A program made the translations under genes and the position numbers. Below the pieces are notes generated by a model. That model saw only the letters and a program-made list of their open reading frames with translations. It did no database searches and was not told the DNA's origin. From Candidatus Thorarchaeota archaeon (lineage in GTDB: Archaea > Asgardarchaeota > Thorarchaeia > Thorarchaeales > Thorarchaeaceae), in the NCBI GenBank assembly GCA_016933575.1, contig JAFGAR010000028.1, positions 220,530-284,529 on the forward strand: a stretch of 64,000 nucleotides of DNA, in the 5' to 3' direction. This document shows, piece by piece, positions 2,693 through 23,630 of the stretch (positions within the stretch are counted from its first letter, which is position 1; each line of letters opens with the position of its first letter).

Positions 2693-2706
2693 TTCATCCA
2701 AGATTC

Positions 2707-4176: not shown

Positions 4177-4620
4177 TTGATTGATTTACCAATTCTAAGT
4201 ATTGACTTAGAGGGAGCTCCAGTAGAATATCTCCTAGACCAAGTTCTATCGCCAACAGATGCAAGTATTATAAATGCTGTGACTAAATTTAAGGAAAAGA
4301 AAAGTAAATTTCCTTCAGCAATGGAGATTCTTGAAGAATTATCTTCAACATCTAGCTTGAAGAAAACACAACTATATGATAGACTTAGTAGGCTTTCTGC
4401 TAGAGGATTCATTACTGTAAAACTACTACCTAGACCACGACGGTATCAAGTCAATCTTGAAACTATCATAGGTGGCGTAAAGAACTGGGTAGAAGAACAA
4501 AGGGTTTCCTTAGAAGGCATAACAAATGAGTTGCAATCAATTCAAAATTTCCTGAATCAGATGGATACCAAAATCTTAGCTTGTGCAATAGCAGAAAAGC
4601 TATCTGTTAGAAATACCTAG
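4177..4620 (+). CDS. Winged-helix DNA-binding protein
   Basis: 147 aa; SAMEILEELSSTSSLKKTQLYDRLSRLSARGFITVKLLPRPRRYQVN resembles wHTH plus wing; TTG start. Confidence 0.6.
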   Translation: MIDLPILSIDLEGAPVEYLLDQVLSPTDASIINAVTKFKEKKSKFPSAMEILEELSSTSSLKKTQLYDRLSRLSARGFITVKLLPRPRRYQVNLETIIGGVKNWVEEQRVSLEGITNELQSIQNFLNQMDTKILACAIAEKLSVRNT

Positions 4621-4622
4621 TA

Positions 4623-4682: not shown

Positions 4683-4697
4683 CAATATTTGAACAAA

Positions 4698-5135
4698 CTA
4701 CTCTTCTTTCTCAAGGTGAATTGCTATGTTACCTCCTCCTAAATAGCCAATGGGGGCAAAACCTATCTCATGGAATACGAGTCCATTTTTGTCCAAGACA
4801 CGAATCTGATAGACATCAATACCACCGGATTCATCAACATCCCAGACATCTACTCGAAACTGATAATTCCCGACATCCCAGAGAAGTTCTCCGGTTTCAG
4901 AGTTGTACTTCTGAATAGTACATCTACCTTCAAAGAATGCATGGTCCTCCTCAATTGCCATTCCAATCCATGCATTACTCTTGATGATTGATAGCCAATC
5001 CCCTTCTCGGAAGGTGTAGATGGATTGACCCTTAGGAAGACCTTTCTTTGTATACTTCACATTAAAGCCAAAGTTACTCTTACTACCAGAGGGTCCAATA
5101 ATCCATCCACCTCCTGTAACGAAATCTCCAGTTGG
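4698..5135 (-). other. C-terminal GGGWI/post-COAP-1-like domain of giant protein
   Basis: DFVTGGGWIIGPSGSKSNFGFNVKYTKKGLPKGQ...DVYQIRVLDKNGLVFHE. Confidence 0.5.
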
Positions 5136-8100
5136 TTCAAAGATTGTCAAAATTACAGGATCCGAATCTGGTCCGTTATAGTAGGGATTATCACCAGATT
5201 CAATTGACACAATGATAATGTAACCATTCTCAGATAGATTGTCAATCTCGAGTGTGATAACTCCTACACCATCCACACTACTCTCCTCCAAGTACACTGG
5301 TCCGAAAACCAAGACTGGAGCATTCAAATCAATTGGCACATTGTAGATTCTGAATGTCACCTGTATCCTTGTGATATCCCCATAGAAACCGTCATCCTCA
5401 TCGAAGACAGTGACTCTGATTGTTATCTCATCAGAAGTAGTAGGAACAACTGTTGAGCCAGTGTACTCTGGAATAGCAGTCTCTTTCTCTATTGTGTAAG
5501 ATGCGGAATCATCACAGAACGAAAATTCAGAATCTGCATTGAATGTAGAAACCACAGTATAGACTCCTGCTGGTTGATTGATGATCATAGATGCCGTGGC
5601 AATTCCAAATTCATCTGTTACAGCAGAGGTAGATTGGGCACCCAGAATGAAGTAGATGACCTTTCCAGAAATTAGCTCTTGAGTCGCTATATCAACTAGT
5701 TGTGCCTGTAACTGAGTTGGGTCAGAATAGTCTCCTACAACTTCTCCGATGTAGGTGAGTTCCACTGCATTGACAATCACGTCAAAGCTATGATAGTCTT
5801 CCAGATTACCAGCAACATCTATACTGCGATAGTTTATAGTGTGATAACCGAATTCAGTGATATAGAATGGAATTAAATATTCAATCCAGACTCCCATGTT
5901 AATTCGATACTCTGTTCTTGCAACTCCTGCAAGATTATCAACAGCCTCCAATGTGATTGGAGTGACTGTCTTGATATAGGTTGGATCGATACTGAACTTC
6001 GGTTCACAAATAGAGTGAGATGTAATGGGAGATGTCTGATCAAGTGTGAAAGAAACTGATTGTGTTGATTCTTGGTTTCCTGCAAAATCACTAGACCAGA
6101 ACTCCAATAGATACACTCCGTCCTCGATAAATGACAATCCTGATTCGTATTTGATCCACGCAGCACCATTCACACGGTAATATGTTTCACAGACGCCAGA
6201 AGTATCATCACTGAAGGAGAGAACAACACCAATCGGTGAGATGTACCAGTTAGCCAATCCATTTGGTATTGCGGGTGTAAGACTGGCAATTGATTCAGGT
6301 GCAACTGTATCAATCTTGAAGTCTGCAGATTTTTGTGGAGCTTCTACATTTCCAAGGTTATCAACTACCCAGTATTCAAGATTATGGAATCCCTCAACCG
6401 TCACATCAAATGATCCGACATATTCTGTTGCAGGACCAGCATCCAATGAATAGAAGATTGCTGATACTCCGCTACCTGCATCACTTGATGAAAGCTCAAC
6501 AGCTACAATTGAAACGAACCAGTCGTTATCACCCATATTACCAATGAAGGTATGGATGGATGAAGGAGCAGTGTTGTCTAAGATGTAGGTCTCTGAAATG
6601 ATATCCTCTTGAGCACCAAGATAATCTACGCTGTAGTATTCAATAATGTATTGACCATCAGGACCAACAAGATAGAATGATGATGAGTACAGCACCCAAG
6701 CACCCTCGTCTATTCTGTAGAAGATTGAGTCAACTCCAACCCCCTCGTCAATCGCACTTAAACTGAGTGAAGTTGCAGAGGTGATGTAAGAATTGAATAT
6801 TGGGCTTCCTTCAATAATCGAGGTCACTGGTGAAGTATCGTCAACAACAAATTGCTCAGTCACTGATGTTTCCATATTACCAAGATTATCGATTCCATAG
6901 TAGGATATTGAATGCAATCCATCAACAGAGGGTAGTGTGAATGGACCAATATATGGAACATAGAGTCCAGAATCAATACTATAGAATAACGCAGCCACGC
7001 CAGAGCCGCCATCAGCAACATTGATTGAAATCTCAGTGAACGATGTCAGATATGGATCTGAGTAGGGTGTTCCAATCACTAGAGATGATATCGGTGCAGA
7101 GTTATCGAGATTGATTACAATGGAGAGCACATCTTCTGTGTTACCTAAGTAATCAATGCTATAGTACTCGATCAGATACGTATCATCGGGACCAAGAACT
7201 GTAAATGAACCACTATAGGTCTCCCATCCACCACCGTTGATACAATAGAAAATCGAATCAACGCCAACACCCAAACCATCATTTGCAGCAAGTGAGATTG
7301 GAGTAACTGATGTGATGTAATCGCCAGATATGGGTTCACCAAAGCTCAAGACGGTTTCAGGGGGTGTATTATCCAGCCTGTGTACTTGTGACTGGAAAAT
7401 CTCCTCATTCGCCACGAAGTCAACTGAGTAAAACTCGATAGTGTATTCACCATCAGGTCCAAGTAGGCTAAATGGATCGCTATACTCTATCCAGGAACCA
7501 CCATTAATACGATAGAAAGTCCAAAAGTACCCAATACCAGCATCAACACTTGTGAGAGCGAACACTGTTTCAGTTGTCACAAATTCACCAACGGTTGGAG
7601 AACCAATAGATTTCGTAGTAACAGGAGCAGTATTGTCCAAGAAGAACCATACTGTTGTTTCTAGTTCACAGTTGCCAGCTGTATCAATTGAGTAGAATCC
7701 TAGTGTGTGATATCCATCAGACCCAAAGATGTAGAATGGATCATCGTATTCAATCCAAGATCCTCCATCAATTCGATAAAATGATAACGAAACTCCGGAA
7801 ATGTCATCTGAGAAAGTAAGATAGAATTCAGACCAGGAGGTAATATAGAATTCGAAAATAGGACCCCCTGTTAAGTAGTAAGTGAATGGGCAACTCTTGT
7901 CAATGTAGATATCAATCTGATTTATAGTTTCAATATTCTCTGCAATGTCAATAGAATAGAAGTAGAATGTTGTGAGACCTTCATTCTGAATCAATTCTGG
8001 TGAAGTATAGGTAAACCATGTGACTCCATCAACACTGTAGTATATGTTTTCGATTTCTGAAACCGTGTCAACTGCAGTCAGTTCAACGAAGACATCAGAC

Positions 8101-11100
8101 ACAAACCAACCATTCAATCCTTCAGTACCACTCAAACTATGATGAGTTGTTGGAGGTGCATTATCCTCCATGGCTCCAAATATCGAGAGATGAGTGACCT
8201 CTCCATAGATGATATTGTTGACTTCATCAACCCAGGTCGTACAGTCCTGCCAACCAGCAGGTTCAGCCCAATGCCAGAGTTTGAGATTCTTCTCAAGACC
8301 ATGAACTAGAGTCGCATCGTATGGTAGTGCCACTATAATCACACCATCAAATACAGCAGTTGTAGTGATGTTGTAATAGAGCCCCATTAATCTGAAATCA
8401 TCAGGTGGATGTGGACCAGTTTCAGTAATCTCAACTTCAGTTGTTCCGGGAACCGAGGTTTCATCAAAGGTCAATGAAATTCCAGTTTCAGGATCTATGA
8501 CTTCAATGTCAGAGCCAGCAGGAGTGTTTCCTTCAACGGTTAGCCATGCTGTATCTGAAGCCTGATTTCCATAAGCATCGAACGCTACGAAAGTGAAGTT
8601 ATAGGTTCCAGGATTGAGCAAGTCTACACTGATACTAATGTCAGAACCAATCCAAAGTCCAGAATCAACTTGAGTGCCATTTCTCAAGATGATATAGGAA
8701 TCCGGATAGAGATCTGAAAAGCTCCAAGTTAATGAGTGGCCAGGTACGCCAGCCTCATAGACAAGGTCATCAGGACCTATGATATCAGGAGGTGTCGTAT
8801 CTTCAACAATAACAGTCACTTGATGTGAACCAGCATTGTTGAATACATCCCAACAAGTCAGGATGTAGTAATACGTTCCAGGATCATTACCATCAATGTT
8901 GTAACTGATAGTGGTTCCACCCCATAGACCCAATCGAACAGGTACACCATTGAGTGAAATCTCATAATCGAATGGATGCAGATCAAATACATCCCAGACG
9001 ATTTGATTTCCAGTACTACCAGCCTCATAGATGATTTCAGAGGGTCCGCTGACCGATGGTGGTGTAGTGTCCTCAACAATTACTGTTACTTGATGTGATG
9101 CTGAATTGCCAGATTCATCATAACATATCAGAGTGTAGTGGTATGTTCCAGCTGTGTGTCCATCGATATTGTATTCAATTGTACCGCTGGTCCAATCATC
9201 CGAAAATACAGGACCACCATTGAGGGTAACCTCATAGGTAGTTGGGTACAGATCGGTTGCAGTCCAGACAATTGTATGCCCGGTAGTACCATCTTCATAG
9301 ACAATCTCTAACGGTCCATCAATGGATGGTGGAGTAGTATCTACAATGTATACCCATACAGAATCGGATGCCCAATTGCTGTTTGCATCAAAGAATGTTA
9401 TCGAGTGATTGTATGCACCAACACCTCGATCGATAATCGTGATCGTCAATGAGGTGCCAGTCCAAGGTCCTTCTCTTGTTTCCACACCATCCCAGAGGAT
9501 ATACCTGTCAGGATATAGATCGAAACAATACCATGTGATTGTATTTCCTGAAGAGCCAGCTTCGACATAGATATCATCTAGAGGTGATGTGATCAATGGT
9601 TTGGTTGTGTCTTCTACAACTACAGTTACTTCGTGCGACCCTTCATTATTGAAAACATCCCAACAGGTTAGAGTGTAATAATAGGTCCCTGGATTATGGC
9701 CATCAATATTGCGTTGTATATCGTTGCCGCTCCACAGACCAAGAACTATTGGTTCACCATCGAGAGAAATCATATACCGTAGAGGATGAGGTTCAGAAGC
9801 AGTCCAGAATATCTGATTACCCAAACTACCTGCTTCATATTCGATTTGGGTTGGTCCATCAACTGCTGGCGGAGTGGTATCCACAACTATTGCAGTTACC
9901 TGATGTGATGCTGAATTACCAGAGGTATCATAACAAGTCACTGTGTAGTAATAGGTACCAGGGCTATGTCCATCGATACTGTATTCGATAGTGTTTCCAA
10001 CCCATAAATCTGCAAATACAGGTACGCCATTAAGAGTAATCTCGTAGTTAGATTGGAATAAATCTGTTGCAGTCCAAACGATTACATTTCCAGTACTTCC
10101 TTCCTCGTAAGTAATCGATGATATCCCATCAACATCTGGATTAACTGTATCCACAACTGTAATTGTGAACTCAGTGTAAGCAACATTGTCGTAAGCATCA
10201 TAGCAATAGAACTCGTAAGTGAAGACTCCAACCAGAGAAGCATCAAAAATGAATTGAATTGGTGTTATGCCATCCCACTCACCTGAAGCGACTAATCCAC
10301 CTTCATAATAGATCTCATATGTTCCAGGATAGAGGTCAAATGGTTGGATTTCACCAACATTGCCTATACTTCCACCCTCAGCATTAAATGAAATCCCAGG
10401 TAGAACAGGAGGAGTAAGATCAACTACAGTCACTATGACAGTGCTAGATGATGATAGTCCTACTTGGTCATAGACTTGTATTCTAAATTCGTAGACACCG
10501 GGGTCAAGACCATCAATGGCTATAGTAATTGTACCACCAAACCAATCACCAGACGTATATTCCACATTGTCAAGATAGACTATGAATGAGATTGGACAGA
10601 AATCATCAGGAGACCATGTGATAGTATGCCCTGTGGTTCCTGCTTCATATGGATCAACTATCGGATTATCGATAGAAGGTGGTGTTGCAGGTTCGACGAT
10701 TACGACAACAGCATCTGCAATCCAGTTGTTGTATATATCAAAGACTTGAATGATGAAGTAGTAATTACCAGCGACTAAGCCATCGAGCGAAACTTCAACT
10801 GGACCTCCACTCCAGCTACTAACTTCAAACAATGCTCCGTCTAAGAATATCTTGTAGTATTGAGGATTTGCCTCAACGGGAGCCCACACTATATTCTCAC
10901 CAGTTATTCCTTCTTCAAATATGATGTCTTCAGGATTATCAATACTGGGTGGCAGGTACTCCCTAACCACATCAATATATTCGTCATTACTCCAATAGCT
11001 ATGTGAACCAGTGTCGTCGATAGCCCGCACTCTGAGGTAACATTCTCCATATGGTAGTGCAGTCAGTGATATTTGCAAGTCTGTTGTAGTAAACTCACCC

Positions 11101-14100
11101 TGTATTATCGAAAATATCGGACTTGCACTATATTGGACTTGGTAGTATGAGATGCTTCCCAGAGAAGATACACTTAAGGTCCAAGACAATGAAACACTCC
11201 CATCAGTACTTATTGTGCCAGGATTATTCAAAACTGGTCGAGTGACATAGACTACCAAAGGAGTTGGATTAAATATAGTGACACCAGTAGAGTATACTAC
11301 CATACTACCAGCTGAAAATCCTGCATGATATCCAACTGCAAAATCTGCGATACCATTAAAATCAAAATCGCCATAGTAGAAAGATATTACGGAATTTGTG
11401 GATGTCCTTTGGAAAATAATACTATTAGTTTCCCAATCTATTATTTGGAATTCCCCGGTCCATGCACCATTAGCATAACCAATACCTACTGCAATCTCAA
11501 AATTCTGATCAGAATCGAAGTTTGCAGCTTTTACGATATTCGGGCAGATATTAGTGCCTAATGTATATGACCACAATAGATCCAAATTGTTATCATACAT
11601 ATTCACATAGTTGATAGTAGCATCTTGTTCTCTTAATCCTGCAATAATACGCAAACTACCATTTGACGCAATTGTTGCAGTTTGTATTGATGTGACTAGA
11701 AACGGACCTAATGATATGGAATCTTGGACTTCATGAGAAGCTCCATCTACAATGAAGAGAGTTCCTTCGAAGGGTGCATAAAGAGAATCTCTGCTACCAA
11801 AAATAAGTTCTAACGCCGGATCGGAATCGATATTCGCAAGACTATGATAGCCGCCTAAACAGAGCCCATATTCTGAAGATCGCCACTCTTCCGAATGTGT
11901 CTTTCCATTATACACGAGGACGAGTCCGTTAATCATATTACTGCCATCCCGTTCAAAATCCGTGATGCCAATGATTTCTTGTTCACCATCTGCGTCTATA
12001 TCTTCGACCCAGAGACTATACACACCATTATTGATAGGACTCAACCATTCTAGTGCACCGGTTAATCCATTATAGACAGCAATACCAGCAATAGGACCAG
12101 TTTGCCACCATCCGCATGTACCAACTAATATCTCAATCTGTCCATCTTCATCAGGATCACCCAAGGCAACAACGCGGGCATATCCAGCACTTAGATAGAT
12201 TGTCCGTTCTAAAGAGTGAGTTATCCCATTGTATATCTGAATGTAACCTGTCGAACCATATCCTGGTTCTATTGCAACTATGGTTTCAGGTACACCATCA
12301 GCATCAACATCACCAGATACGATATCATGAACGATTCCAATATTCCCAGTTTCCCAGAGGAATTCCAACGAGGGATTCGTGGGTGCTGGAACCCCAGTAT
12401 CATACACTTCCATACAACCCGAGGAAAATCCTGCATGATATCCAATTGCTAGTTCTGTAAATCCATCTCCGTTGATATCCTCCACACATACCACCAGACC
12501 GGCATTCTTGTTCGGTCTTGTGTATAGCAGCGACTGGGATACAGCATCAATGATTCGAAAATGCCCGTACCAATTCCCTGAAGCATCAGCAATACCTGCA
12601 GCGATTTCAAGCGTTGGATCAGTATCAAGGTTAGCCATTGTGATACTGTAGGAATAGAGACCAGTACCAATGAAATATTCCCAATTGAAATTCAAACTTG
12701 TATCATAAGCACGGAGAAAGCCTGTGCCAGCCGCTTGGTCTATGAATCCAACTACGAGATCGAGAGAACCATCAATATCATAATCAGCAGCATCGAAACA
12801 CATAGTGTGCAGTGCGCCAACTACAAGTGAGTCCTGAACGGTATGAGTAGCACCATCTACAATCCAGATTGTGTTGGTATATGGTAGGTCGTTAGCGGTA
12901 CGACCACCGAAAACTAACTCCAATGCCGGATCATCGTCGAGGTTCCCTATCCAACTATAGTCACCAATTCCAAACCCGAAGCTACTGGTTTCCCATTCTA
13001 TTGCCTTCGTTTGACCATCAATTATCATTACAGTTCCAGGAGTCCTGATGTTGTTTACACGTTCAGTGATCACCATTCCAATGATTTCCATTGCACCATC
13101 CGCATCGATATCTTCAACTCCAACTGTATGGAACGCTTCATGCCGCACAGTTTCCCACTCTAACGCGCCAGTCGTTCCAGAAAAGACTCTGATCCTCCCG
13201 ATAGGTCCTGATTGCCAAGTACCCACAGTTCCAACCACAATTTCTATTGTTCCATCATGATCACAATCACCTAGGGCAAGGCTTCTTGCGTAACCATCAG
13301 CCATATAGATGATTCTCTCGAGTGAATGAGTCAGTCCATCGTATACACGTACATGGCCTACACCATAGGATGATTCGATGGCAAGAACGATTTCATTTCG
13401 CCCGTCAGCATCAACATCGCCAACACGGATATCATGTACGATTCCGATATTGCCAGTGTCCCAAGTCAATGATAGTGAAACTGGACCAGATTCATAGTTT
13501 ATCACTTCAAATTCTATGCTTTGGACTACTTCACAATTACCAGCCATATCTACAGAATAGCATTCGAATAGATAGAAACCAGATTGAGCAATTGTGAGAG
13601 TTTGATCATACCGGTGCCATGGACCACCATTTAGACGATATTCAACATAGTTCGGTCCGCTTTCTTGATCCTCGCAGGATAGAGAGATATCAATAGATTC
13701 TATGTACTGCCCATTAAGATTCTGTGTTCCACCTCTGGAAATGCTTGTTGATGGTCGAGTCTTATCGATTGAGAATATCAGATGTTTTTCCAACGACGGA
13801 TTACCAAGATTGTCCACTCCATAATATCGGATATCATAGGAATACTCATACTCCAAAGTGAACATCTCAAGGTAAGTGCAATATGTTACTCCATCTAAAC
13901 TATACATGATGTAATCGAGACCTGTAGGCAAATCAAACCCCCATATGACCACATCTACTGAACTGAGGTAGTAGTTATTCTGACCGACTACACCAAGAGC
14001 TGAAGCATAGACATTAGGCAATGTGTCATCAATCCTGAATGCACCAATATGGTACGCACTGAATGCCCAATTTCCTGCAACATCACTAGTCCTAATATGA

Positions 14101-17100
14101 AGATACCAGATTCCTGATTCGAGAGTTGTAGTGAGACTTGTTGAGGTCGTATCGAGAATTGTATCTGGAAGAGTATCAATTTCGTGGCTCCACTCGTACG
14201 AATATCCATACACTCCACTGAACGCATCCGATGCACCAAACCATTCAATGAACACTTCATCAATGGATGACCATGTATTGACAATGTGGGTAGAAGTGAA
14301 ACTAATCGGATTCTGTGGGAACGGTGAAGGTTGATCAATAAGAATCTCGATTGGTGGATTAGTTTCGACATTGCCATTTCGGTCTGTAGATCTATAGTAG
14401 AACCAATTCTGACCATTATTGTGGATTGTTACTGGTATGGAATACTCAATCCAGGTCACACCGTCAAAGCTGAATTCTGTAGAATAAATACCAGAGAACT
14501 CATCATTAACTTCCAAGGAAATAGTAACGGGAGAGGTGTACCAAGGTGCATTTACGACATCACCAGATGGAAAAGCCTCTGTAATCGGAGCAGTCGTATC
14601 AATCTTAATGGTAATTATCTGGTAGGGTTCAATATTTCCAGCATTGTCGATTGATCGATAGTACAATATGTTAATTCCATTAGCAGAAACCACAATGGGA
14701 TTCGAGTAGGTAATCCAGTCTATTCCATCATAGCTGTATTCAATTCTAGCGACACCAGACACATCATCGATCGCATTAAGACTGAATTCGACATAGGTGC
14801 TATACCAGTCATCAAAACCAATTGTACCATCAAGAGTTACAGTGGTCTGAGGATATGGTTGATCCACATGTTTAAACATTGACCAGTAGTATGCCTCAAT
14901 TCCAGGAACATCACCAATTTTTGTCAGGGTTCCATCATACGATGCTTTCATTAGATTCATATTTTTATCTACGAAAATGAGGTCCCTCTTTCCATCACCA
15001 TCATAGTCAATGAACTGATTCAGATTATCATAGCAGTCCTCCGAATAATACAATCGTCGTGATACATCATAGGTCCAAAGATTGGTCCCGGTTGCTAGAT
15101 CCCAAAGATGGATGCGTGCATTCGTCTCAGTCCAATCATATAGTGCAACCTCGTAGAATCCATCACCATTTAGGTCGAAAATATCAATTGTGAATGAACC
15201 CCGACCCCAGAGTGGAAGTGGTGGGAGGACATCAGCGCCCGTTGTCATGTTAATATAATAAGCGTAGAGAGTTACTTCGGAATATGAAGTGGTACAAACT
15301 ATTCCTGTACCGAGTGATATGAGACCAAGGTACGTCTTTATGTTTCTATCAGCATTTCCTCCAGGGAAACTTCTTTGCCACAAAAATGTACCATCGTGAT
15401 CATAAGCAACGACTGGAGGTCCCCATCCCGCCACAAAGAATTCCGGTTGTGGATCTGCATCTATATTCACTACTTCAAAATCTGTCATTCCTCCACTATA
15501 AGAGTCTTGGAAGTAAAGTAATTGTGTCATAGCGAAGTTTCGTAAATCAACAACTTGTACTCGTGGTTGTCCTTGAGGATAGATTGCTGCACCAGCCATC
15601 AAGTATGCATCACGTACTCCATCGCCATTATAGTCTGCAAGGAAACCTCTATCGACTCGCCATCCAGGATTGTACTGAGCAAGAAGATTTCCATCACTAT
15701 CATGAATGAATAATGTAGGTGCAACTTGTCTTGGTAGATGTTGAGTTACAATCTCCTTTATTCCATCATTATTGAGATCCTCAAAATACATCCCAAAAAT
15801 GAAGGCACAGCTCACCTCAGCAGGAACCTGCCATGACCAGAGAAGACTTCCATCTTCATAGTCGAATCTCATAAGTCTGATGTAGGTTTCATATCCAGAC
15901 ACATACAATTCCAAATGGCCATCATTGTTTGTATCATTTAAAGCGAAAGTATGGAAGATGTATGCGGGCATGTAGGTGTCCCAAATCAAATCGAAAGCAC
16001 CAGTTATGGGATTGTAGTCCTGTCTCATCACGTGACCATCACGTGTGGTGATGATTAGAGCATTATCTGAATCTGTATACGGGAGATCAATCTTGAAATC
16101 ATCTGATTTTGTAACCTCTGGATTACCTGCTACATCTGTAGCATTGAAGTAGATTGTGAATTCACCCTGCTCAGAGAATGTGAAGGGGCCAGTATACTCA
16201 ATCCAGTTGACTTCATCAAAGCTGTATGCAATTGTTTCAACACCCAATCCTTCATCGGTGGATGTGAGGGTTATAGTGACTCCAGAAGTGAACCAATCAT
16301 TATCTCCCGGGGTTCCATCAATATCGATAACAGTTACTGGTGGAGTATCGTCTTCAAGTACAGCAAACCATGAAAGTGAATTGACTTCACCGTATGCAAT
16401 ATTATTTACTACATCAATCCAAAGTGTAACATCGATCCATTCACCATTCTCTAAGTGTTTGAGCTTCAGATTGGATTCTCCGGCATCATTTTGTTTGCCT
16501 TCATATGGAAGTGCAATTGTGATTGTTCCTATGTATGTTGCAGTAGTTGTAATGTCGTAGTAGTAATTACCACCAAGTTTGAAACCGGTATGTGGATGTG
16601 GTGGTGTTGTACTTGCGATGATAGTAGTTATGCCAGCTGTCAAAGTTTCATCAAATACTATAGAAACTCCAGTTTCGGAATCAACAACCTCCACATCAAT
16701 TCCATACGGAGTATTTCCGAAAACCTCCACAGTAACATCCATGCTACTAGGATTGTTATAAGCATCATTAGCCCAAAGAGTAAATACATACAAACCTGGA
16801 TTTAGTCCATCAATTGCGATACTGATGGTTTCAGATTCGATTTGACCTGAATAAATAGGATTCCCATCTTTGAGAATTTCATAGGTTCCAGGATAGGGTT
16901 CAATGATATTCCAATCGAGGAAATGACCTAGTGTTCCAGCATCATATGGATAGTAAATTTGTCCAGATATTTGAGGTCCAATGTCGTCATAGATTTCCAA
17001 AGAAATGATTTCACTAATTGCACTCCAATATTGTGGATCTCCATCCCATCTCGAACGAATATAGTAAGTTCCCGGATCATAAATCCATGATGCAATGAAT

Positions 17101-20100
17101 TTACCATTTGAACCTGTATTGCCAGCTGAAATCTCCTGCCAATCCAGACCATCAACAGAGTACTCGATGACAACATACTTCAAATCAAGAATGGGACTAA
17201 TTGTAACATTAATTGTCGCACTTGTATCGTATCGAATTGAGGTAGAAGAAATCTCTGTTATCAATGTTGTCGGATATCTCTCACTTATAGTTAATTCAAG
17301 ATGATTACTGATACTGCCATAATAATGAGCATCACCAAAATAGACACACATTATATAGTAATCTCCAGAAAGTGTGGGAGTCCAGTCAATTGTAAAAACT
17401 CCATTTGAGCTAATGGCTTCACCAAATTTCTGCCATGATTCATCATCGTAGCTCCAGTAGAATTCTGCTATATGATTATCAAGTGAAGGTGTTAACCAAC
17501 CATTAATCAAGACAGTATCATCCAATATCAAGAAACTTGTTGATGAAACAATAGATAGTTGAGTTTGTATTTTATCGACTTCCAATTCGATTTCATCACT
17601 TGTACCTGATTTGTAATTGGAATCACTTTCTATTATTGCTCTTAGATAATAATTACCTGGCTCTGGACTCAGAAGATTGTACTGAATTGCACCTAAAACA
17701 GTATTGTCAGAGAAAAGCTCAATCCAAGTTACACCGTCATTACTTATTTGTAGTATAATTTCTCTTCCATCAACAGCTGGAATGATGGTAGATGAAATAA
17801 GAACACTTTGAGGATACACGATTGAGGAATCTGAGATTGCAATAGTTAGGGTGACACTAATTCTATTATCGATGGTAAATACACCTGTGAATTCTGATCC
17901 AGCTCCTCCATTATTATCATTAAAAGCGATAAGAACAATGCAATTGGTGCTTAATAGAATATCATCAGTATGTATTGGTAGACCCAAAGAATGCCCTGTT
18001 GGAGAGCAAAGAAAATCAAACGACTGAAAGGATTCAACCCAAGTTAAACCGCCGTCAATCGATATGAAAATTTTAAAATGAACCCAATCGTAATCATCAT
18101 CAAAGCAATCAAAGAATAAACCAAAAACATCCTCACATATTTGACCCTCAATAGGTCCTGTTATTGAGATGATTGGTTGTCGATTAGGGAGATTGTCAAT
18201 CTCAAAAGTACCAGATACAATTACACCTGTTCCGCCCCATTCGTCATCATAATGAAGCCTAAACTTCATGTTTTTAGAATCAGGAAGATCAGTCGAATCG
18301 AAAAGATACTCATGATAATAACCTTTAGCGTATTCGTATGTTGTGAAAAATGGATACCAAGTCTGTCCCAAATTAGGGGAATACTCAGCAGTATACCAAA
18401 TTCTATCATAATTTGAATCACTTACATCCCAAATGAAATACCACTCACCCGAAATTACAAGTCCCTCAGAAGGTGTAATGATAGAAACAGATGGTTCGGA
18501 ATTTACTTGATTTGGATGATGTAGGTAGTTGTGGAATCCCCAAACAAATTCATCCCACGAGTAAGTAATCGAACAATCAAGTCCATCATATGGCTTATTG
18601 TAGGAAATTACGTGTTGAGGGAAATAGATTGCAATCCCGTGGGAATCTGGGTGTGCGGATTTATAGCAATGATTGATGTACGAAGCTGAATACGAGTCTA
18701 GCACAACCTGAATAGCATATTGAATCTCACTATTAGTAATCCTCAATTGGAGTTTTTCTAGGAAATCCACTAAATCCACACCACTCCCAGGATATTGGTC
18801 AGCAGTTATTCGTGCATCATATATCATAGATTCATATGAAGCGATGTTATCTAACAGTAATTGAGCTAAGTTATCTAAAGCTGGAACTAAATATTGTACG
18901 ATCTCAAATATTTTGAACGCTCCCATTGTGGCGGTTGCCTCAGGGGCGAAAATATAATACTCATCAACCATAAGTGATGCGAAATCTTGTGAACTGATAG
19001 TCCCACTTGTTTCAAGAGCTGTTTGTAAACCGCTTAGTATCAAATGGTAAGGCCAACCGCCCACATAATTGATAAAAGGTGGTAATATTGATAGTTCTGG
19101 TCGTCCTTGTTCATTGTCTTCAGATGCTACAAGAATCTCCGCAGAGTTTCGTAATTGATATGCAATCTCAACCATACCCATTATACAAGCATCAAACCCA
19201 ACTATATCCAATTCAATCGCTGTGTCTTCCAGAGCTTGTCCAAATTCACTCACACTCATACCTATATTGTCATTTGTACCATCTTGGAGAAGAATATTAT
19301 CTGCTCCACCTCCATGATCCATAACGATAAGTGCGTAATGTTGAGCTTGAAATGTTGAAGCTGACCATTCCACGAAATTAGTGAGTGTGCGTGGATTAGC
19401 CATATCAAGCTCCGATTCTAACCATGGCACATACAACGGATCTCCTTGGAAACTTGATGATGTTTCATATTCAATGTAATAATATACCCAGAGAAGATAT
19501 TCTAATCCAATAAATATGCCAGGCATATAGAACCGGAGAAATGTATCACCATCGGACGCACCATCTTTGAGACAGATAACACTCATTTCACTATTGGAAC
19601 CTATCTGTCCGATTTCCTCAAGATCATTATCAGCGAAGACATCTAGATTATTGTCACCATCAAGATAGATAATTACAGTCCATTCAGCAGCCCATATATA
19701 TGGAGAGTATCCAGAATCTTGGTTATCTTCACCAGTCCCTATTCCACAAGTTGTTAGTTTATTAGCTTCACCAACTTGCTGATAATAATCAACAATGATA
19801 TCAATCGAATGCATTCCAATATTAGAAAACACAAAAGTTTCAGATATATGAAATGAAGTTCCTAATAGTGGTACATCCCTCAAAAGATATCTGCTATATC
19901 CTTCATCAACAATAATTGCGATAGTGTAGACCTGATCAATCCAGTAATCACCACCGTTTCGGACATCAAATTCCAAAGTAAATGGCTGTCCAGAAGCTAA
20001 TTTTCCAAAGAGATTATTGTAAACATCATATACTTTGATGTTTTCAAGAATAAGATCAGGACTTTTGAACCAATTTTTATCCCACCACCAATTTTGGTCT

Positions 20101-22202
20101 TCATCTGATTCAATTACCTCATCAGCACAATCTACATGTATCTCAAGAATATGATATCCAGGTCCTACATCATCACAGGGATAATAGAAGTGATGATACC
20201 CACCTGCGACGATTGTCACATCTTGGATAGTATAAAGAAGGTTTAGAGCAATCAGTTGATTTTGATCATCCCTATAATCACTCCATATCTCGATATCAAA
20301 GTTGGATGCTACAGAACCTCCAACATTGAAAACATCGAATGAAATCGAAAAGGACTCCCATCCAATTAGATTTGATGAGACCACAATATTGTCAATTGTC
20401 AAATCTGGCAGAGCAAGAATTTTCAGCGCATTATCTATCCATATAGAATCAACCTGTTGCCATATCCCATCCACCTGATACCAAAGTCCCCAAACGACAC
20501 CATAATTGCCTGGACTAAGACCATTAAGATCGAAATATCGTTCTTGCCATTCCGGATAGCTTGGAATCCAGAGCGTAACATCATTTTCAGGGTCATCAAA
20601 TGTACCGCTAGCATTGAAAAGAGATGCACCTAAACCAACGCAAATTGAAGAACCAAATGGGTTATTTATGTAGTAATTGAATTTTATGATTCCGCCTTCT
20701 ACTGCAGATGTTGCATCAAGACTAACATCAAGCAAAGAGGGGAGAGGTGGATTCACTTTTACCTTGACTACACCACTCTCTCTTATGTTACCCCCTACAT
20801 CCCAAACTTTCGCTTTAAAGAAATATACACCCTCCGTAAGGTCGCCAATAGGATAAGAAAATGATGATCCATCCCAAGTAGTATCAATATCCTTTACATA
20901 CCAAGGCTCGGTACTACTCGAACTCTCAAAAATCACGTATGTGCTAGGATACATATCATAAGCAGTCCAAACAATCGAATAGGAACCAGAACCCTCAACG
21001 AATTCAATATCAGGAGGTGTAATTAGGATGGGAGGTGTAGTATCTGGAGGAACATCAAGATATTTCCAATCCCAGTTATTATCTTCTTCAACTTCCCATG
21101 AACTACCAGGTATCCATGGAGATCCGGGGGTATGATCAGCATGAATATCAAGTGAAGGAGTTCCACTTGGAATAGAATATGTTACGAAATTACTACTCCA
21201 AGTTAGACCAGCTCCAAGATAACTCCTAGTCAAATCCTTTATGCATGACCCATAATCGCCATTTCTCCAGTTCTTCCAAAAAGAAAGATGAAAATTAGTT
21301 GCAGCCAAATTACCCATATTCTGAACTGAAAAGGAAACTGTTGTAGGACCACCCCCTACTGTTGTATTTACTAAGAAAGCAGTAACCTTAAGGTCTGGAC
21401 CTCTGATTGTTATTGGTTCATCCTCATAATCAAGAGCTGTGTATCCCTCAAAAGGACCATCCCATATTGCAAAGCGAATCATCTTAGATCCACCTATATT
21501 GTAGTTCTCTGGGTCGCCAAATTGGTCATATTGAACTCTAAATAATCTTGAATCAGTCGCTGCATCATTTGCGTGAATTATTATTGATAGCTTGTCGTGA
21601 TCTGGATCACTAAGCCAAACTCCAGGATTAATCACAACCGAAGCGCCTAGCCATACTCGTATATCAAAGTCTTCATGATTAATAATACGATACCATATTG
21701 TGAAAGTTTCTCCGACTGCAACATCATTATCACTGATATAAGATAATGAATAGTCTAATTCAGCATCATATAGTCCTTCACCATATTCTCCAGCATGATA
21801 TCCATCTGGACTAGTAAGGGAAAATTCTTCGAGCTCGAACTGCGGGAAATCTTGATTATAATGAGTTATCAAGGCTGGATTTTTGTAATCACCTGATTTT
21901 GTATCAGAGTCGCTTGTGATTTGGAAAGGAGATAATACTTCATCTAGAGAAGGATAGGTAACAAGCATAGATTCAGGTTGTGTATATAAACTTCTATCAA
22001 TTGAGTTGATGATTTTATCACTCAGATATACTTCATCGTTATTCAAAATCGTAGATGATACAGGTATTTTAGAATCTTCTAAACTTTCCCAATCAACAAT
22101 CTTCGACACATCGATTGCCACCGAAAACATCGGAGCAACCATCAGTACAATCATCACTACAGAAATAATTCGCATTCCCACTGACCTATTCATGACACCC
22201 AT
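4698..22202 (-). CDS. Giant secreted multidomain surface protein with C11-like peptidase, FG-GAP propellers, Ig-like and OmpL47-like repeats
   Basis: Single 5,834 aa ORF; signal peptide MRIISVVMIVLMVAPMFSVA; domain motifs read directly in the translation. Confidence 0.9.
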   Translation of the reverse strand: MGVMNRSVGMRIISVVMIVLMVAPMFSVAIDVSKIVDWESLEDSKIPVSSTILNNDEVYLSDKIINSIDRSLYTQPESMLVTYPSLDEVLSPFQITSDSDTKSGDYKNPALITHYNQDFPQFELEEFSLTSPDGYHAGEYGEGLYDAELDYSLSYISDNDVAVGETFTIWYRIINHEDFDIRVWLGASVVINPGVWLSDPDHDKLSIIIHANDAATDSRLFRVQYDQFGDPENYNIGGSKMIRFAIWDGPFEGYTALDYEDEPITIRGPDLKVTAFLVNTTVGGGPTTVSFSVQNMGNLAATNFHLSFWKNWRNGDYGSCIKDLTRSYLGAGLTWSSNFVTYSIPSGTPSLDIHADHTPGSPWIPGSSWEVEEDNNWDWKYLDVPPDTTPPILITPPDIEFVEGSGSYSIVWTAYDMYPSTYVIFESSSSTEPWYVKDIDTTWDGSSFSYPIGDLTEGVYFFKAKVWDVGGNIRESGVVKVKVNPPLPSLLDVSLDATSAVEGGIIKFNYYINNPFGSSICVGLGASLFNASGTFDDPENDVTLWIPSYPEWQERYFDLNGLSPGNYGVVWGLWYQVDGIWQQVDSIWIDNALKILALPDLTIDNIVVSSNLIGWESFSISFDVFNVGGSVASNFDIEIWSDYRDDQNQLIALNLLYTIQDVTIVAGGYHHFYYPCDDVGPGYHILEIHVDCADEVIESDEDQNWWWDKNWFKSPDLILENIKVYDVYNNLFGKLASGQPFTLEFDVRNGGDYWIDQVYTIAIIVDEGYSRYLLRDVPLLGTSFHISETFVFSNIGMHSIDIIVDYYQQVGEANKLTTCGIGTGEDNQDSGYSPYIWAAEWTVIIYLDGDNNLDVFADNDLEEIGQIGSNSEMSVICLKDGASDGDTFLRFYMPGIFIGLEYLLWVYYYIEYETSSSFQGDPLYVPWLESELDMANPRTLTNFVEWSASTFQAQHYALIVMDHGGGADNILLQDGTNDNIGMSVSEFGQALEDTAIELDIVGFDACIMGMVEIAYQLRNSAEILVASEDNEQGRPELSILPPFINYVGGWPYHLILSGLQTALETSGTISSQDFASLMVDEYYIFAPEATATMGAFKIFEIVQYLVPALDNLAQLLLDNIASYESMIYDARITADQYPGSGVDLVDFLEKLQLRITNSEIQYAIQVVLDSYSASYINHCYKSAHPDSHGIAIYFPQHVISYNKPYDGLDCSITYSWDEFVWGFHNYLHHPNQVNSEPSVSIITPSEGLVISGEWYFIWDVSDSNYDRIWYTAEYSPNLGQTWYPFFTTYEYAKGYYHEYLFDSTDLPDSKNMKFRLHYDDEWGGTGVIVSGTFEIDNLPNRQPIISITGPIEGQICEDVFGLFFDCFDDDYDWVHFKIFISIDGGLTWVESFQSFDFLCSPTGHSLGLPIHTDDILLSTNCIVLIAFNDNNGGAGSEFTGVFTIDNRISVTLTIAISDSSIVYPQSVLISSTIIPAVDGREIILQISNDGVTWIELFSDNTVLGAIQYNLLSPEPGNYYLRAIIESDSNYKSGTSDEIELEVDKIQTQLSIVSSTSFLILDDTVLINGWLTPSLDNHIAEFYWSYDDESWQKFGEAISSNGVFTIDWTPTLSGDYYIMCVYFGDAHYYGSISNHLELTISERYPTTLITEISSTSIRYDTSATINVTISPILDLKYVVIEYSVDGLDWQEISAGNTGSNGKFIASWIYDPGTYYIRSRWDGDPQYWSAISEIISLEIYDDIGPQISGQIYYPYDAGTLGHFLDWNIIEPYPGTYEILKDGNPIYSGQIESETISIAIDGLNPGLYVFTLWANDAYNNPSSMDVTVEVFGNTPYGIDVEVVDSETGVSIVFDETLTAGITTIIASTTPPHPHTGFKLGGNYYYDITTTATYIGTITIALPYEGKQNDAGESNLKLKHLENGEWIDVTLWIDVVNNIAYGEVNSLSWFAVLEDDTPPVTVIDIDGTPGDNDWFTSGVTITLTSTDEGLGVETIAYSFDEVNWIEYTGPFTFSEQGEFTIYFNATDVAGNPEVTKSDDFKIDLPYTDSDNALIITTRDGHVMRQDYNPITGAFDLIWDTYMPAYIFHTFALNDTNNDGHLELYVSGYETYIRLMRFDYEDGSLLWSWQVPAEVSCAFIFGMYFEDLNNDGIKEIVTQHLPRQVAPTLFIHDSDGNLLAQYNPGWRVDRGFLADYNGDGVRDAYLMAGAAIYPQGQPRVQVVDLRNFAMTQLLYFQDSYSGGMTDFEVVNIDADPQPEFFVAGWGPPVVAYDHDGTFLWQRSFPGGNADRNIKTYLGLISLGTGIVCTTSYSEVTLYAYYINMTTGADVLPPLPLWGRGSFTIDIFDLNGDGFYEVALYDWTETNARIHLWDLATGTNLWTYDVSRRLYYSEDCYDNLNQFIDYDGDGKRDLIFVDKNMNLMKASYDGTLTKIGDVPGIEAYYWSMFKHVDQPYPQTTVTLDGTIGFDDWYSTYVEFSLNAIDDVSGVARIEYSYDGIDWITYSNPIVVSANGINILYYRSIDNAGNIEPYQIITIKIDTTAPITEAFPSGDVVNAPWYTSPVTISLEVNDEFSGIYSTEFSFDGVTWIEYSIPVTIHNNGQNWFYYRSTDRNGNVETNPPIEILIDQPSPFPQNPISFTSTHIVNTWSSIDEVFIEWFGASDAFSGVYGYSYEWSHEIDTLPDTILDTTSTSLTTTLESGIWYLHIRTSDVAGNWAFSAYHIGAFRIDDTLPNVYASALGVVGQNNYYLSSVDVVIWGFDLPTGLDYIMYSLDGVTYCTYLEMFTLEYEYSYDIRYYGVDNLGNPSLEKHLIFSIDKTRPSTSISRGGTQNLNGQYIESIDISLSCEDQESGPNYVEYRLNGGPWHRYDQTLTIAQSGFYLFECYSVDMAGNCEVVQSIEFEVINYESGPVSLSLTWDTGNIGIVHDIRVGDVDADGRNEIVLAIESSYGVGHVRVYDGLTHSLERIIYMADGYARSLALGDCDHDGTIEIVVGTVGTWQSGPIGRIRVFSGTTGALEWETVRHEAFHTVGVEDIDADGAMEIIGMVITERVNNIRTPGTVMIIDGQTKAIEWETSSFGFGIGDYSWIGNLDDDPALELVFGGRTANDLPYTNTIWIVDGATHTVQDSLVVGALHTMCFDAADYDIDGSLDLVVGFIDQAAGTGFLRAYDTSLNFNWEYFIGTGLYSYSITMANLDTDPTLEIAAGIADASGNWYGHFRIIDAVSQSLLYTRPNKNAGLVVCVEDINGDGFTELAIGYHAGFSSGCMEVYDTGVPAPTNPSLEFLWETGNIGIVHDIVSGDVDADGVPETIVAIEPGYGSTGYIQIYNGITHSLERTIYLSAGYARVVALGDPDEDGQIEILVGTCGWWQTGPIAGIAVYNGLTGALEWLSPINNGVYSLWVEDIDADGEQEIIGITDFERDGSNMINGLVLVYNGKTHSEEWRSSEYGLCLGGYHSLANIDSDPALELIFGSRDSLYAPFEGTLFIVDGASHEVQDSISLGPFLVTSIQTATIASNGSLRIIAGLREQDATINYVNMYDNNLDLLWSYTLGTNICPNIVKAANFDSDQNFEIAVGIGYANGAWTGEFQIIDWETNSIIFQRTSTNSVISFYYGDFDFNGIADFAVGYHAGFSAGSMVVYSTGVTIFNPTPLVVYVTRPVLNNPGTISTDGSVSLSWTLSVSSLGSISYYQVQYSASPIFSIIQGEFTTTDLQISLTALPYGECYLRVRAIDDTGSHSYWSNDEYIDVVREYLPPSIDNPEDIIFEEGITGENIVWAPVEANPQYYKIFLDGALFEVSSWSGGPVEVSLDGLVAGNYYFIIQVFDIYNNWIADAVVVIVEPATPPSIDNPIVDPYEAGTTGHTITWSPDDFCPISFIVYLDNVEYTSGDWFGGTITIAIDGLDPGVYEFRIQVYDQVGLSSSSTVIVTVVDLTPPVLPGISFNAEGGSIGNVGEIQPFDLYPGTYEIYYEGGLVASGEWDGITPIQFIFDASLVGVFTYEFYCYDAYDNVAYTEFTITVVDTVNPDVDGISSITYEEGSTGNVIVWTATDLFQSNYEITLNGVPVFADLWVGNTIEYSIDGHSPGTYYYTVTCYDTSGNSASHQVTAIVVDTTPPAVDGPTQIEYEAGSLGNQIFWTASEPHPLRYMISLDGEPIVLGLWSGNDIQRNIDGHNPGTYYYTLTCWDVFNNEGSHEVTVVVEDTTKPLITSPLDDIYVEAGSSGNTITWYCFDLYPDRYILWDGVETREGPWTGTSLTITIIDRGVGAYNHSITFFDANSNWASDSVWVYIVDTTPPSIDGPLEIVYEDGTTGHTIVWTATDLYPTTYEVTLNGGPVFSDDWTSGTIEYNIDGHTAGTYHYTLICYDESGNSASHQVTVIVEDTTPPSVSGPSEIIYEAGSTGNQIVWDVFDLHPFDYEISLNGVPVRLGLWGGTTISYNIDGNDPGTYYYILTCWDVFNNAGSHQVTVIVEDTTPPDIIGPDDLVYEAGVPGHSLTWSFSDLYPDSYIILRNGTQVDSGLWIGSDISISVDLLNPGTYNFTFVAFDAYGNQASDTAWLTVEGNTPAGSDIEVIDPETGISLTFDETSVPGTTEVEITETGPHPPDDFRLMGLYYNITTTAVFDGVIIVALPYDATLVHGLEKNLKLWHWAEPAGWQDCTTWVDEVNNIIYGEVTHLSIFGAMEDNAPPTTHHSLSGTEGLNGWFVSDVFVELTAVDTVSEIENIYYSVDGVTWFTYTSPELIQNEGLTTFYFYSIDIAENIETINQIDIYIDKSCPFTYYLTGGPIFEFYITSWSEFYLTFSDDISGVSLSFYRIDGGSWIEYDDPFYIFGSDGYHTLGFYSIDTAGNCELETTVWFFLDNTAPVTTKSIGSPTVGEFVTTETVFALTSVDAGIGYFWTFYRINGGSWIEYSDPFSLLGPDGEYTIEFYSVDFVANEEIFQSQVHRLDNTPPETVLSFGEPISGDYITSVTPISLAANDGLGVGVDSIFYCINGGGWETYSGSFTVLGPDDTYLIEYYSIDYLGNTEDVLSIVINLDNSAPISSLVIGTPYSDPYLTSFTEISINVADGGSGVAALFYSIDSGLYVPYIGPFTLPSVDGLHSISYYGIDNLGNMETSVTEQFVVDDTSPVTSIIEGSPIFNSYITSATSLSLSAIDEGVGVDSIFYRIDEGAWVLYSSSFYLVGPDGQYIIEYYSVDYLGAQEDIISETYILDNTAPSSIHTFIGNMGDNDWFVSIVAVELSSSDAGSGVSAIFYSLDAGPATEYVGSFDVTVEGFHNLEYWVVDNLGNVEAPQKSADFKIDTVAPESIASLTPAIPNGLANWYISPIGVVLSFSDDTSGVCETYYRVNGAAWIKYESGLSFIEDGVYLLEFWSSDFAGNQESTQSVSFTLDQTSPITSHSICEPKFSIDPTYIKTVTPITLEAVDNLAGVARTEYRINMGVWIEYLIPFYITEFGYHTINYRSIDVAGNLEDYHSFDVIVNAVELTYIGEVVGDYSDPTQLQAQLVDIATQELISGKVIYFILGAQSTSAVTDEFGIATASMIINQPAGVYTVVSTFNADSEFSFCDDSASYTIEKETAIPEYTGSTVVPTTSDEITIRVTVFDEDDGFYGDITRIQVTFRIYNVPIDLNAPVLVFGPVYLEESSVDGVGVITLEIDNLSENGYIIIVSIESGDNPYYNGPDSDPVILTIFEPTGDFVTGGGWIIGPSGSKSNFGFNVKYTKKGLPKGQSIYTFREGDWLSIIKSNAWIGMAIEEDHAFFEGRCTIQKYNSETGELLWDVGNYQFRVDVWDVDESGGIDVYQIRVLDKNGLVFHEIGFAPIGYLGGGNIAIHLEKEE
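5770..8165 (-). repeat. Nine tandem ~88-aa OmpL47-like repeats (block B)
   Basis: DNTAPVT..GSP..G.YITS.T.ISLSA.D.G.GV..IFYRIDGG.W..Y..PF.L.GPDG.Y.IEYYS.D..GN.E repeated. Confidence 0.8.
8523..10952 (-). repeat. Nine tandem 90-aa Ig-like repeats
   Basis: PPSIDGP.EIxYExGxTGxxIxW..DLxPxxYxIxLxG..W.G..I.xxIDGxxPGTYxYTxxCxDxxxNxxSHxVTVxVxDTT; 2430 bp = 9 x 270 bp. Confidence 0.85.
11280..13475 (-). repeat. Two tandem seven-bladed FG-GAP-like propellers, near-duplicate of each other
   Basis: Each starts W(D/E)TGNIGIVHDI..GDVDADG and ends VGYHAGFS.G.M.VY.TGV; seven DxDxxxE-type blade motifs per copy (one degenerate in copy 2). Confidence 0.75.
13490..14870 (-). repeat. OmpL47-like repeat block A (about five units)
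   Basis: DTTAPIT..WYTSPVTISLEVNDEFSGIYSTEFSFDGVTWIEY..FYYRSTDRNGN-type units. Confidence 0.6.
14880..16080 (-). other. FG-GAP/VCBS-like propeller 1 of giant protein
   Basis: DTNNDGHLELYVSG, DLNNDGIKEIVTQ, DYNGDGVRDAYLMAG, NIDADPQPEFFVAG, DLNGDGFYEVALYD, DYDGDGKRDLIFVD; about seven units. Confidence 0.7.
18515..19690 (-). other. Clostripain-like (C11) cysteine peptidase domain of giant protein
   Basis: WTVIIYLDGDNNLD start; YALIVMDHGGG (His codon 19314..19316); IVGFDACIMGMVEIAYQL (Cys codon 19185..19187); SHGIAIYFP. Confidence 0.85.
19780..21420 (-). other. CARDB-like domains (three units) of giant protein
   Basis: DLKVTAFLVN..VSFSVQNMGN, PDLTIDNIVVSS..FDVFNVGGSVAS, PDLILENIKVYD..FDVRNGG. 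Confidence 0.6.
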
Positions 22203-22377: not shown

Positions 22378-22442
22378 GGCCCAGAATAGACACGCCCTAC
22401 ACTTTGGGCGTTGAAAGACCGTTTTTGGTTACGGTGAAAATC

Positions 22443-23630
22443 ATGAGAGACCCAACAGGTTGGATGCGCGACGAGTACAACACACTTGTCGAGCAGAATT
22501 TAAACTGGAGAATTCGAGAACTTCAGGGTCCCAGCACCCCGAAGGCAAAGATTGATGGCAAAGAGGTCATCATGCTTTGCTCTAACAATTATCTGAACCT
22601 CAGTAATCACCCAAAACTGAAAGAGGCTGCTCTTAAGGCTATCAAATCACATGGCGTTGGTTCAGGCTCTGTCCGTGCCATTGCGGGTACCATGGACCTC
22701 CATTTAGAATTGGAACGACGTCTAGCTAAGTTCAAAGGAGCAGAGGCGTCACTTACCTATAGTGCTGGATTTACCTGCAATGAGGGACTCATCCCACAGC
22801 TTGTTGACAAAGAAGATGCTATCATCTCAGATGAATTGAATCACGGTTCTATCATCGATGGTGTTCGGCTTACAAAGGCCACACGTTATGTCTACAAGCA
22901 CAATGATGTCGCAGATCTTGAGAGAGTCCTCAAAGAGGCTGAGAAAGAGAAGCCTAGAAGGATGCTCCTTATTACTGATGGTGTCTTTTCTATGGATGGA
23001 GACATTGCGCCTTTGGATGGTATCGTGAAAGCTGCAAAACCATATGGTGCAATGATTTATGTGGACGATGCTCACGGGGAGGCCGTCTTAGGAAAGGGCG
23101 GTCGAGGTATTGTTTCGCACTTCAATCTCACCCATAAGGATGTCCACTTCGAGATGGGTACTTTCTCAAAGGCTTTTGGAGTCATGGGAGGGCACGTGTC
23201 AGGAAGTCGTGACATGGTGAATTACGCATTGAACAAGAGCCGTTCCTGGTTGCTTAGCGCTTCGCACCCACCAGCCACCGCAGCTGCCTGTATTGCAGCA
23301 ATCGATGTCCTTGAGACCGAGGAGAAACATGTGAAAACACTCTGGGAGAATCGAGAGTATTTCATTAAGGGTCTCCAACAGATGGGATTTGACACTGGCA
23401 ATAGCATGACACCAATTATTCCTGCAATGTGTGGTGAGAGCTCAAAGGCTGTTGCACTCAGTGATGGTCTTGTACAAGAGGGTATCCTCGCACTACCAAT
23501 AGTCTTCCCAATGGTTTCCCGTGACAAAGCAAGAATCAGGAACATAATGAATTCTGGTCTAACAAAAGCCCAATTGGATACTGCTTTAGCAGCCTACGAG
23601 AAAGTCGGAAAACGAGCTAAAATCATCTAG
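22443..23630 (+). CDS. kbl: Glycine C-acetyltransferase / 2-amino-3-ketobutyrate CoA ligase-like PLP enzyme
   Basis: alpha-oxoamine synthase signatures CSNNYLNLSNHP, GSGSVRAIAGT, DDAHGEAVLGKGGRG, GTFSKAFGVMGGHV; ATG 22443 preferred over the GTG-type upstream start at 22404. Confidence 0.85.
   Translation: MRDPTGWMRDEYNTLVEQNLNWRIRELQGPSTPKAKIDGKEVIMLCSNNYLNLSNHPKLKEAALKAIKSHGVGSGSVRAIAGTMDLHLELERRLAKFKGAEASLTYSAGFTCNEGLIPQLVDKEDAIISDELNHGSIIDGVRLTKATRYVYKHNDVADLERVLKEAEKEKPRRMLLITDGVFSMDGDIAPLDGIVKAAKPYGAMIYVDDAHGEAVLGKGGRGIVSHFNLTHKDVHFEMGTFSKAFGVMGGHVSGSRDMVNYALNKSRSWLLSASHPPATAAACIAAIDVLETEEKHVKTLWENREYFIKGLQQMGFDTGNSMTPIIPAMCGESSKAVALSDGLVQEGILALPIVFPMVSRDKARIRNIMNSGLTKAQLDTALAAYEKVGKRAKII

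What the first reader, a model, noticed from the sequence alone, without database searches (positions are those of the whole stretch)
4698..22202. 5,834-aa secreted protein joining a C11 (clostripain-like) protease to integrin-like propellers and long repeat stalks
Seen: signal peptide, three CARDB-like units, a C11-like domain with His (MDHGGG) and Cys (FDACIMG) in place, three seven-unit FG-GAP-like propellers, nine Ig-like 90-mers and nine OmpL47-like 88-mers, with a C-terminal GGGWI domain and no TM or sortase-like anchor. Inference: an exported adhesin/protease fibre for cell-cell or substrate contact; propellers carrying DxDxxxE motifs suggest Ca2+-dependent folding.
Basis: partly seen in the sequence, partly recalled or inferred. 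Interest (0 to 1): 0.72.

Follow-up and report, generated by a model that had tools for sequence, protein, structure and literature searches.

The report
Giant archaeal surface protein carrying protease
A Thorarchaeota (Asgard archaeon) genome encodes one 5,834-residue exported protein that carries a clostripain-type protease near the front of a long, probably calcium-stiffened rod, and a relative keeps the same rear half but carries a different front, which suggests an extracellular fibre whose working heads can be exchanged.

Summary
Window 4698-22202 encodes 5,834 aa without interruption. It has a signal peptide, CARDB domains, a real C11 (clostripain) domain with His963, Cys1006 and S1 Asp1004 in place, three seven-bladed VCBS/FG-GAP-type propellers, exactly nine Ig-like and nine OmpL47-like units in the two long arrays (more elsewhere), and a C-terminal post-COAP-1 domain. 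It has no membrane anchor. Repeat collapse is unlikely: the longest exact internal DNA repeat is 22 bp. "Integrin-like" is too strong, since the integrin Cage motif is all but absent.

The organism is a Candidatus Thorarchaeota archaeon. The last 320 aa define a tail found strongly in 15 of 47 Thorarchaeia genomes, nearly always once, with only weak partial matches beyond that class. A relative in another genus keeps aa ~2480-5834 (41-51% identity) at the same locus, but its N-terminal part is a peptide-binding SBP_bac_5 domain instead of CARDB/C11. A same-genus genome has the locus without the giant gene. Best reading: a secreted, rod-like surface protein with exchangeable heads, here a protease, attached by an unknown route. 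Asgard giants and C11 enzymes are each known; the arrangement is a new variant.

The parts
4698..22202 (-). giant secreted protein, 5,834 aa (~647 kDa, pI ~4.05)
22110..22202 (-). signal peptide, aa 1-31 (approximate end)
   Evidence: sequence; hydropathy 2.72 at aa 12-30
21054..21398 (-). CARDB-like unit 1, aa 269-383
   Evidence: self-HMM
20754..21041 (-). Ig-like unit, aa 388-483
20064..20408 (-). CARDB unit 2, aa 599-713
   Evidence: PF07705 E 8.8e-12
19758..20060 (-). probable third CARDB-like unit, aa 715-815
   Evidence: by eye from sequence; not detected by HMM
18513..19691 (-). C11 (clostripain-family) peptidase domain, aa ~838-1230
   Evidence: PF03415 E 1.1e-31; PDB 9cip; fold match
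19314..19316 (-). catalytic His963 (MDHGGG)
   Evidence: invariant in 17 aligned sequences
19185..19193 (-). Asp1004 (S1 site) to catalytic Cys1006 (FDACIMG)
   Evidence: Cys invariant, Asp in 15 of 17; roles from PMC4850288 and PMC11296011
17889..18497 (-). twin 95-aa units after C11, aa 1236-1438
17025..17861 (-). three Big_3_5-like units, aa 1448-1726
16719..16982 (-). Ig-like unit, aa 1741-1828
16086..16340 (-). OmpL47-like unit, aa 1955-2039
14853..16076 (-). propeller 1, aa ~2043-2450
   Evidence: FG-GAP_3; Ca motifs
14334..14852 (-). two OmpL47-like units, aa 2451-2623
13503..14018 (-). two OmpL47-like units, aa 2729-2900
12378..13472 (-). propeller 2, aa ~2911-3275
11268..12374 (-). 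propeller 3, aa ~3277-3645
8532..10955 (-). nine Ig-like 90-mers, aa 3750-4557
5769..8153 (-). nine OmpL47-like 88-mers, aa 4684-5478
   Evidence: NF047446
4701..5660 (-). conserved 320-aa tail: Ig/Big-type sandwiches plus post-COAP-1 domain
   Evidence: alignment
4716..5123 (-). post-COAP-1 domain, aa 5694-5829
   Evidence: NF041523 41.3 bits, cut-off 40
4177..4620 (+). 147-aa probable winged-helix protein, conserved neighbour
   Evidence: 49%, 49% and 33% identity in three relatives at the same place; weak HTH matches
2707..3957 (-). 416-aa protein of unknown family, conserved neighbour
   Evidence: 42-47% identity
785..2692 (+). 635-aa protein: signal, ectodomain, one TM (~aa 542-560), C-terminal winged-helix-like end
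22404..23630 (+). glycine C-acetyltransferase-like gene (kbl) bounding the locus
   Evidence: PF00155; 86% identical in the empty-site genome

Best explanation
This is an exported, rod-like extracellular protein of a Thorarchaeota archaeon. A C11 cysteine protease sits near its N-terminus, some 40 or more beta-rich modules including three Ca2+-motif propellers form the stalk and contact sites, and a lineage-specific C-terminal tail most likely holds it at the cell envelope. Shown: export signal, C11 fold with intact dyad residues and S1 Asp, module map, conserved tail, and a different N-terminal part in a homologue at the same locus. Inferred: that the protease is active on proteins with Arg or Lys at P1, that the propellers bind Ca2+ and perhaps surface glycans, that the tail is the cell-proximal end, and that the purpose is cutting proteins at a distance from the cell or on neighbouring cells or particles.
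For: C11 family score and dyad; clostripain is the best PDB sequence and fold match. 14 DxDxDG-type loops. A relative in another genus keeps aa 2480-3688 at 41%, 4153-4856 at 43% and 5302-5834 at 51%, but has SBP_bac_5 (193 bits) at its front, with flanking genes shared. Tail conserved in proteins of very different size and content. C11 proteins of other Asgards often end in a C-terminal TM after an N-terminal or central protease, which by analogy puts the protease distal and the C-terminus proximal.
Against: No anchor of any known kind was found, and neither the tail's function nor a binding partner is known. The tail model has only weak Ig-type fold matches. The segment between His963 and Cys1006 has no Lys or Arg, so the usual self-cleavage activation site is missing. 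The loop after the Cys carries an extra ~20 aa, and the Asp of the relatives' 'DGWPY' is Gly here. No other sampled Thorarchaeia giant carries C11.
Confidence: 0.6

Rival explanations
1. A freely released scavenging exoenzyme: the modules only bind detrital substrate, and the protease feeds peptides to the cell. Not a surface fibre.
For: No anchor. C11-like proteases of sediment archaea have been linked to detrital protein breakdown (Lloyd et al. 2013 as cited in PMC10315481). The relative carries a peptide-binding SBP_bac_5 domain at its front, which fits nutrient capture.
Against: A single freely diffusing 647-kDa chain is a costly way to make one enzyme; C11 proteins of 419-425 aa with no C-terminal TM exist in the same genus. 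A long conserved stalk and tail suggest fixed placement.
Confidence: 0.25
2. The C11 domain processes the giant itself or its partners, for maturation or shedding, not external substrates.
For: C11 enzymes self-process (PMC4850288, PMC10315481).
Against: No Lys or Arg between His963 and Cys1006; the relative with the same body has no C11, so the body does not need it.
Confidence: 0.08
3. A mobile-element giant of the aloposon kind (Wu et al. 2022, PMC8813620).
For: Size range; patchy presence; one genome has the same neighbours without the gene.
Against: No second giant in tandem, the only tRNA in the window is ~28 kb away, and no MinD/ParA gene among the near neighbours scanned.
Confidence: 0.03
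4. Assembly artefact joining separate genes.
For: The genome is a draft bin: 85.5% complete, 6.9% contamination, 215 contigs.
Against: One open frame, no N, diverged repeats, lies within a 295,671-bp contig, and a homologue with the same order of modules over the rear half.
Confidence: 0.02

Closest known systems
Clostripain family (MEROPS C11, Pfam PF03415), e.g. clostripain 9cip, PmC11, globupain
   Same: Fold, His/Cys dyad residues, S1 Asp two residues before Cys
   Different: Embedded at aa 838-1230 of a 5,834-aa protein; no Lys/Arg in the usual activation segment; ~20-aa insertion in the loop after Cys
Giant proteins of Asgard archaea (Wu et al. 2022, PMC8813620, Extended Data Fig. 7)
   Same: Proteins over 3,000 aa in Asgards, including Thorarchaeota
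   Different: Not in an aloposon setting; the figure's individual architectures could not be read here, so overlap with this protein was not tested
VCBS/FG-GAP-type beta-propellers
   Same: Pfam FG-GAP_3, DxDxDG loops, seven-blade spacing
   Different: Integrin-type Cage motif all but absent
post-COAP-1 domain proteins (NF041523)
   Same: C-terminal domain over cut-off in this and six other Thorarchaeia genomes
   Different: Here part of a longer 320-aa lineage-specific tail
Giant Ig-array bacterial adhesins (SiiE/Bap-like)
   Same: Long Ig-like arrays, Ca2+ motifs, acidic, secreted (general knowledge)
   Different: No type I secretion signal expected in an archaeon; protease domain in the chain

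Membership tests
Peptidase C11 (clostripain) | Score over curated family cut-off | tested here: met
   110.6 bits against 25.8
Peptidase C11 (clostripain) | His/Cys dyad and Asp two before Cys | tested here: met
   His963, Asp1004, Cys1006
Peptidase C11 (clostripain) | Clan CD fold like solved C11 structures | tested here: met
   All 10 matches with E<=0.001 are C11 enzymes; best 9cip TMq 0.66. Dyad distances in the model were not measured
Peptidase C11 (clostripain) | Lys/Arg self-cleavage site between His and Cys | tested here: not met
   0 Lys/Arg in that segment. Not universal: one other Asgard homologue also has none, so this is not treated as excluding membership
Peptidase C11 (clostripain) | Arg/Lys cleaving activity | not testable with these tools
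   needs an assay
Integrin-type propeller | Cage motif in each blade | tested here: not met
   1 match in three propellers; definition from PMC3192720
Integrin-type propeller | Ca2+ motif in blades | tested here: met
   14 DxDxDG-type motifs; binding itself untested
post-COAP-1 domain | Score over NCBIfam cut-off | tested here: met
   41.3 against 40, (marginal); 43.0
OmpL47 barrel domain (NF047446) | Score over cut-off | tested here: met
   237.8, 152.4 and 267.9 bits in three segments against 40. In an archaeon an outer-membrane barrel role is not implied
Aloposon giant | Tandem giant genes next to a tRNA, with MinD/ParA gene | tested here: not met

The most novel reading that the evidence does not exclude
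A dedicated exchangeable-head surface system: one locus in Thorarchaeota holds a giant rod with a conserved body and tail whose N-terminal working part is swapped (protease in one genus, peptide-binding protein in another, absent or different in others), next to single-pass membrane proteins with an outside domain and a winged-helix-like inside end that may sense the fibre or its target, and a small winged-helix protein that may regulate it.
Probability: 0.2. Interest if true: 0.75.

Novelty: new variant of a known kind. Interest (0 to 1): 0.52.

Why it matters
Asgard archaea are the closest known prokaryotic relatives of eukaryotes, and how they contact and feed on their surroundings is largely unknown. 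A conserved extracellular rod with interchangeable protease or peptide-binding front parts would be a testable molecular route for contact and feeding at a distance. It also gives a defined locus in which head exchange can be followed between genera.

Tried and rejected
Repeat collapse: rejected. Integrin relationship: rejected by the Cage motif test; a sequence search of propeller 2 against PDB gave nothing. Aloposon: not supported. The first genome-contig scan, with C11 alone, found no relatives; the second, with the tail alignment, did. Origin of the C11 domain: the tree keeps it outside the well-supported clade of three small Thorarchaeota C11s (100/100), but its own placement is weak (80/75) and many branches are long, so no donor is claimed. 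Tail fold search gave only Ig-like and other weak matches with query TM below 0.3. The whole-protein search failed for length and several calls failed on reading frame. CARDB unit 3 was not recovered by HMM.

Full report
Observation. Window 4698-22202 is one open frame of 5,834 aa on the minus strand. The window lies in a draft bin of 3.47 Mb in 215 contigs, 85.5% complete with 6.9% contamination, inside a contig of 295,671 bp. There is no N in the window and codon-position GC is similar throughout the ORF.

Organism. The tail of the protein, searched in named genomes, gave 12 loci, all labelled Candidatus Thorarchaeota. An Arf/Ras-like GTPase gene in the window fits an Asgard archaeon. The assignment of the window to Thorarchaeota rests on this kinship, not on a named record of the window itself.

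Anatomy. In order: signal peptide; an unnamed beta region; CARDB (269-383), Ig (388-483), CARDB (599-713) and a probable third CARDB (by eye); C11 (~838-1230); twin 95-mers (1236-1438); three Big_3_5-like units; Ig (1741-1828); OmpL47-like (1955-2039); propeller 1; OmpL47-like pairs on either side of an fn3-like stretch (by eye); propellers 2 and 3; nine Ig-like units (3750-4557); nine OmpL47-like units (4684-5478); and a tail of Ig-type sandwiches and a post-COAP-1 domain. A similar unnamed ~120-aa module at about 1832-1950 and 4561-4682 was noted by eye. The chain is acidic, about 647 kDa with pI about 4.05.

Protease. The C11 model matches at E 1.1e-31. The nearest solved sequence is clostripain 9cip, which is also the nearest fold (E 1.6e-18, TMq 0.66). 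His963 and Cys1006 are invariant among 17 Asgard sequences, and Asp1004 is present in 15. In PmC11 and clostripain the equivalent Asp lines the S1 pocket for Arg/Lys (PMC4850288, PMC11296011). Two departures deserve a test: no Lys or Arg lies between His963 and Cys1006, where known enzymes cut themselves, and a ~20-aa insertion sits in the loop after Cys, with Gly in place of the Asp of 'DGWPY'. Calcium need varies in the family: clostripain and globupain need it, PmC11 does not (PMC10315481).

Propellers. Pfam FG-GAP_3 matches strongly, and 14 DxDxDG-type loops occur. The integrin Cage motif as given in PMC3192720 occurs once in all three. They are VCBS-type propellers, and nothing specific ties them to integrins.

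Relatives. The last 320 aa align with nine relatives at 37-61% identity. A search of 47 Thorarchaeia genomes finds matches in 17, of which 15 are strong (over 150 bits), almost always one per genome. A search of 228 genomes of the phylum finds only weak partial matches outside this class. The proteins with this tail differ greatly in length, from about 600 aa to 5,834 aa. Some carry OmpL47 units only, some carry cadherin/tandem-95 arrays, one adds a NosD-type beta-helix and one a Laminin_G domain.

Same locus, different head. The relative G036 (record CP070658) keeps the giant's aa 2480-3688, 4153-4856 and 5302-5834 at 41-51% identity, but carries SBP_bac_5 (193 bits) at its front. Its record has a run of N near the very start of the ORF, so the extreme N-terminus is unknown. 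Two genes on the 3' side, the 635-aa membrane protein and the 416-aa protein, are shared at 43-45%, as is the small winged-helix gene (33%). In G008, same genus, the same genes and kbl (86%) lie next to each other without any giant gene between them. In G012 the same genes border a different giant end that runs off the contig and shows one in-frame stop. The locus is rare: the 416-aa protein is found strongly in 5 of 47 genomes.

Mechanism. I commit to a secreted, rod-like surface protein with a proteolytic head. The C-terminus is taken as the cell-proximal end because it is the conserved part and because many other Asgard C11 proteins end in a C-terminal membrane helix. No anchor was found, so the mode of attachment is the weakest step. 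The main rival is a free scavenging enzyme.

Novelty. Asgard giant proteins have been reported (PMC8813620), and C11 proteases are known from archaea (PMC10315481). A search of the held library for Thorarchaeota together with clostripain found one paper, on another archaeal group. What is new here is the fusion, the lineage-specific tail and the change of head at one locus. I rate it a new variant of a known kind.

Noticed in passing
window 1-2692: Two adjacent single-pass membrane proteins with an outside domain and a winged-helix-like C-terminal end (one matches PCI weakly). The pair recurs beside the giant in G036 and G012, and beside the empty site in G008. The first is cut by the window start.
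   Followed up: partly
L133 5794-9109 compared with window 2707-23630: Same-genus genome with the same gene order (416-aa gene, winged-helix gene, kbl) but no giant gene between.
   Followed up: yes
L134 1-2451: Different giant protein end at the same locus in G012, with Ig-like repeats, no post-COAP-1 tail and one in-frame TAG.
   Followed up: partly
L057, L058, L059, L060 C-termini: Short tail-family proteins of the genus end in His/Arg/Lys-rich stretches after the post-COAP-1 domain, unlike the giant; possible metal or polymer binding.
   Followed up: no
L011: Asgard C11 homologue with Ser in place of the catalytic Cys (FDASFMG), a membrane helix and a zinc-ribbon-like C-terminus.
   Followed up: no
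window 32691-34643: 650-aa protein with an Arf/Ras-like GTPase domain at aa 122-263 and a long remainder without Pfam match.
   Followed up: no
window 36487-40035: C-5 cytosine methylase next to an Eco57I/N6 adenine methylase, a possible restriction-modification cluster.
   Followed up: no
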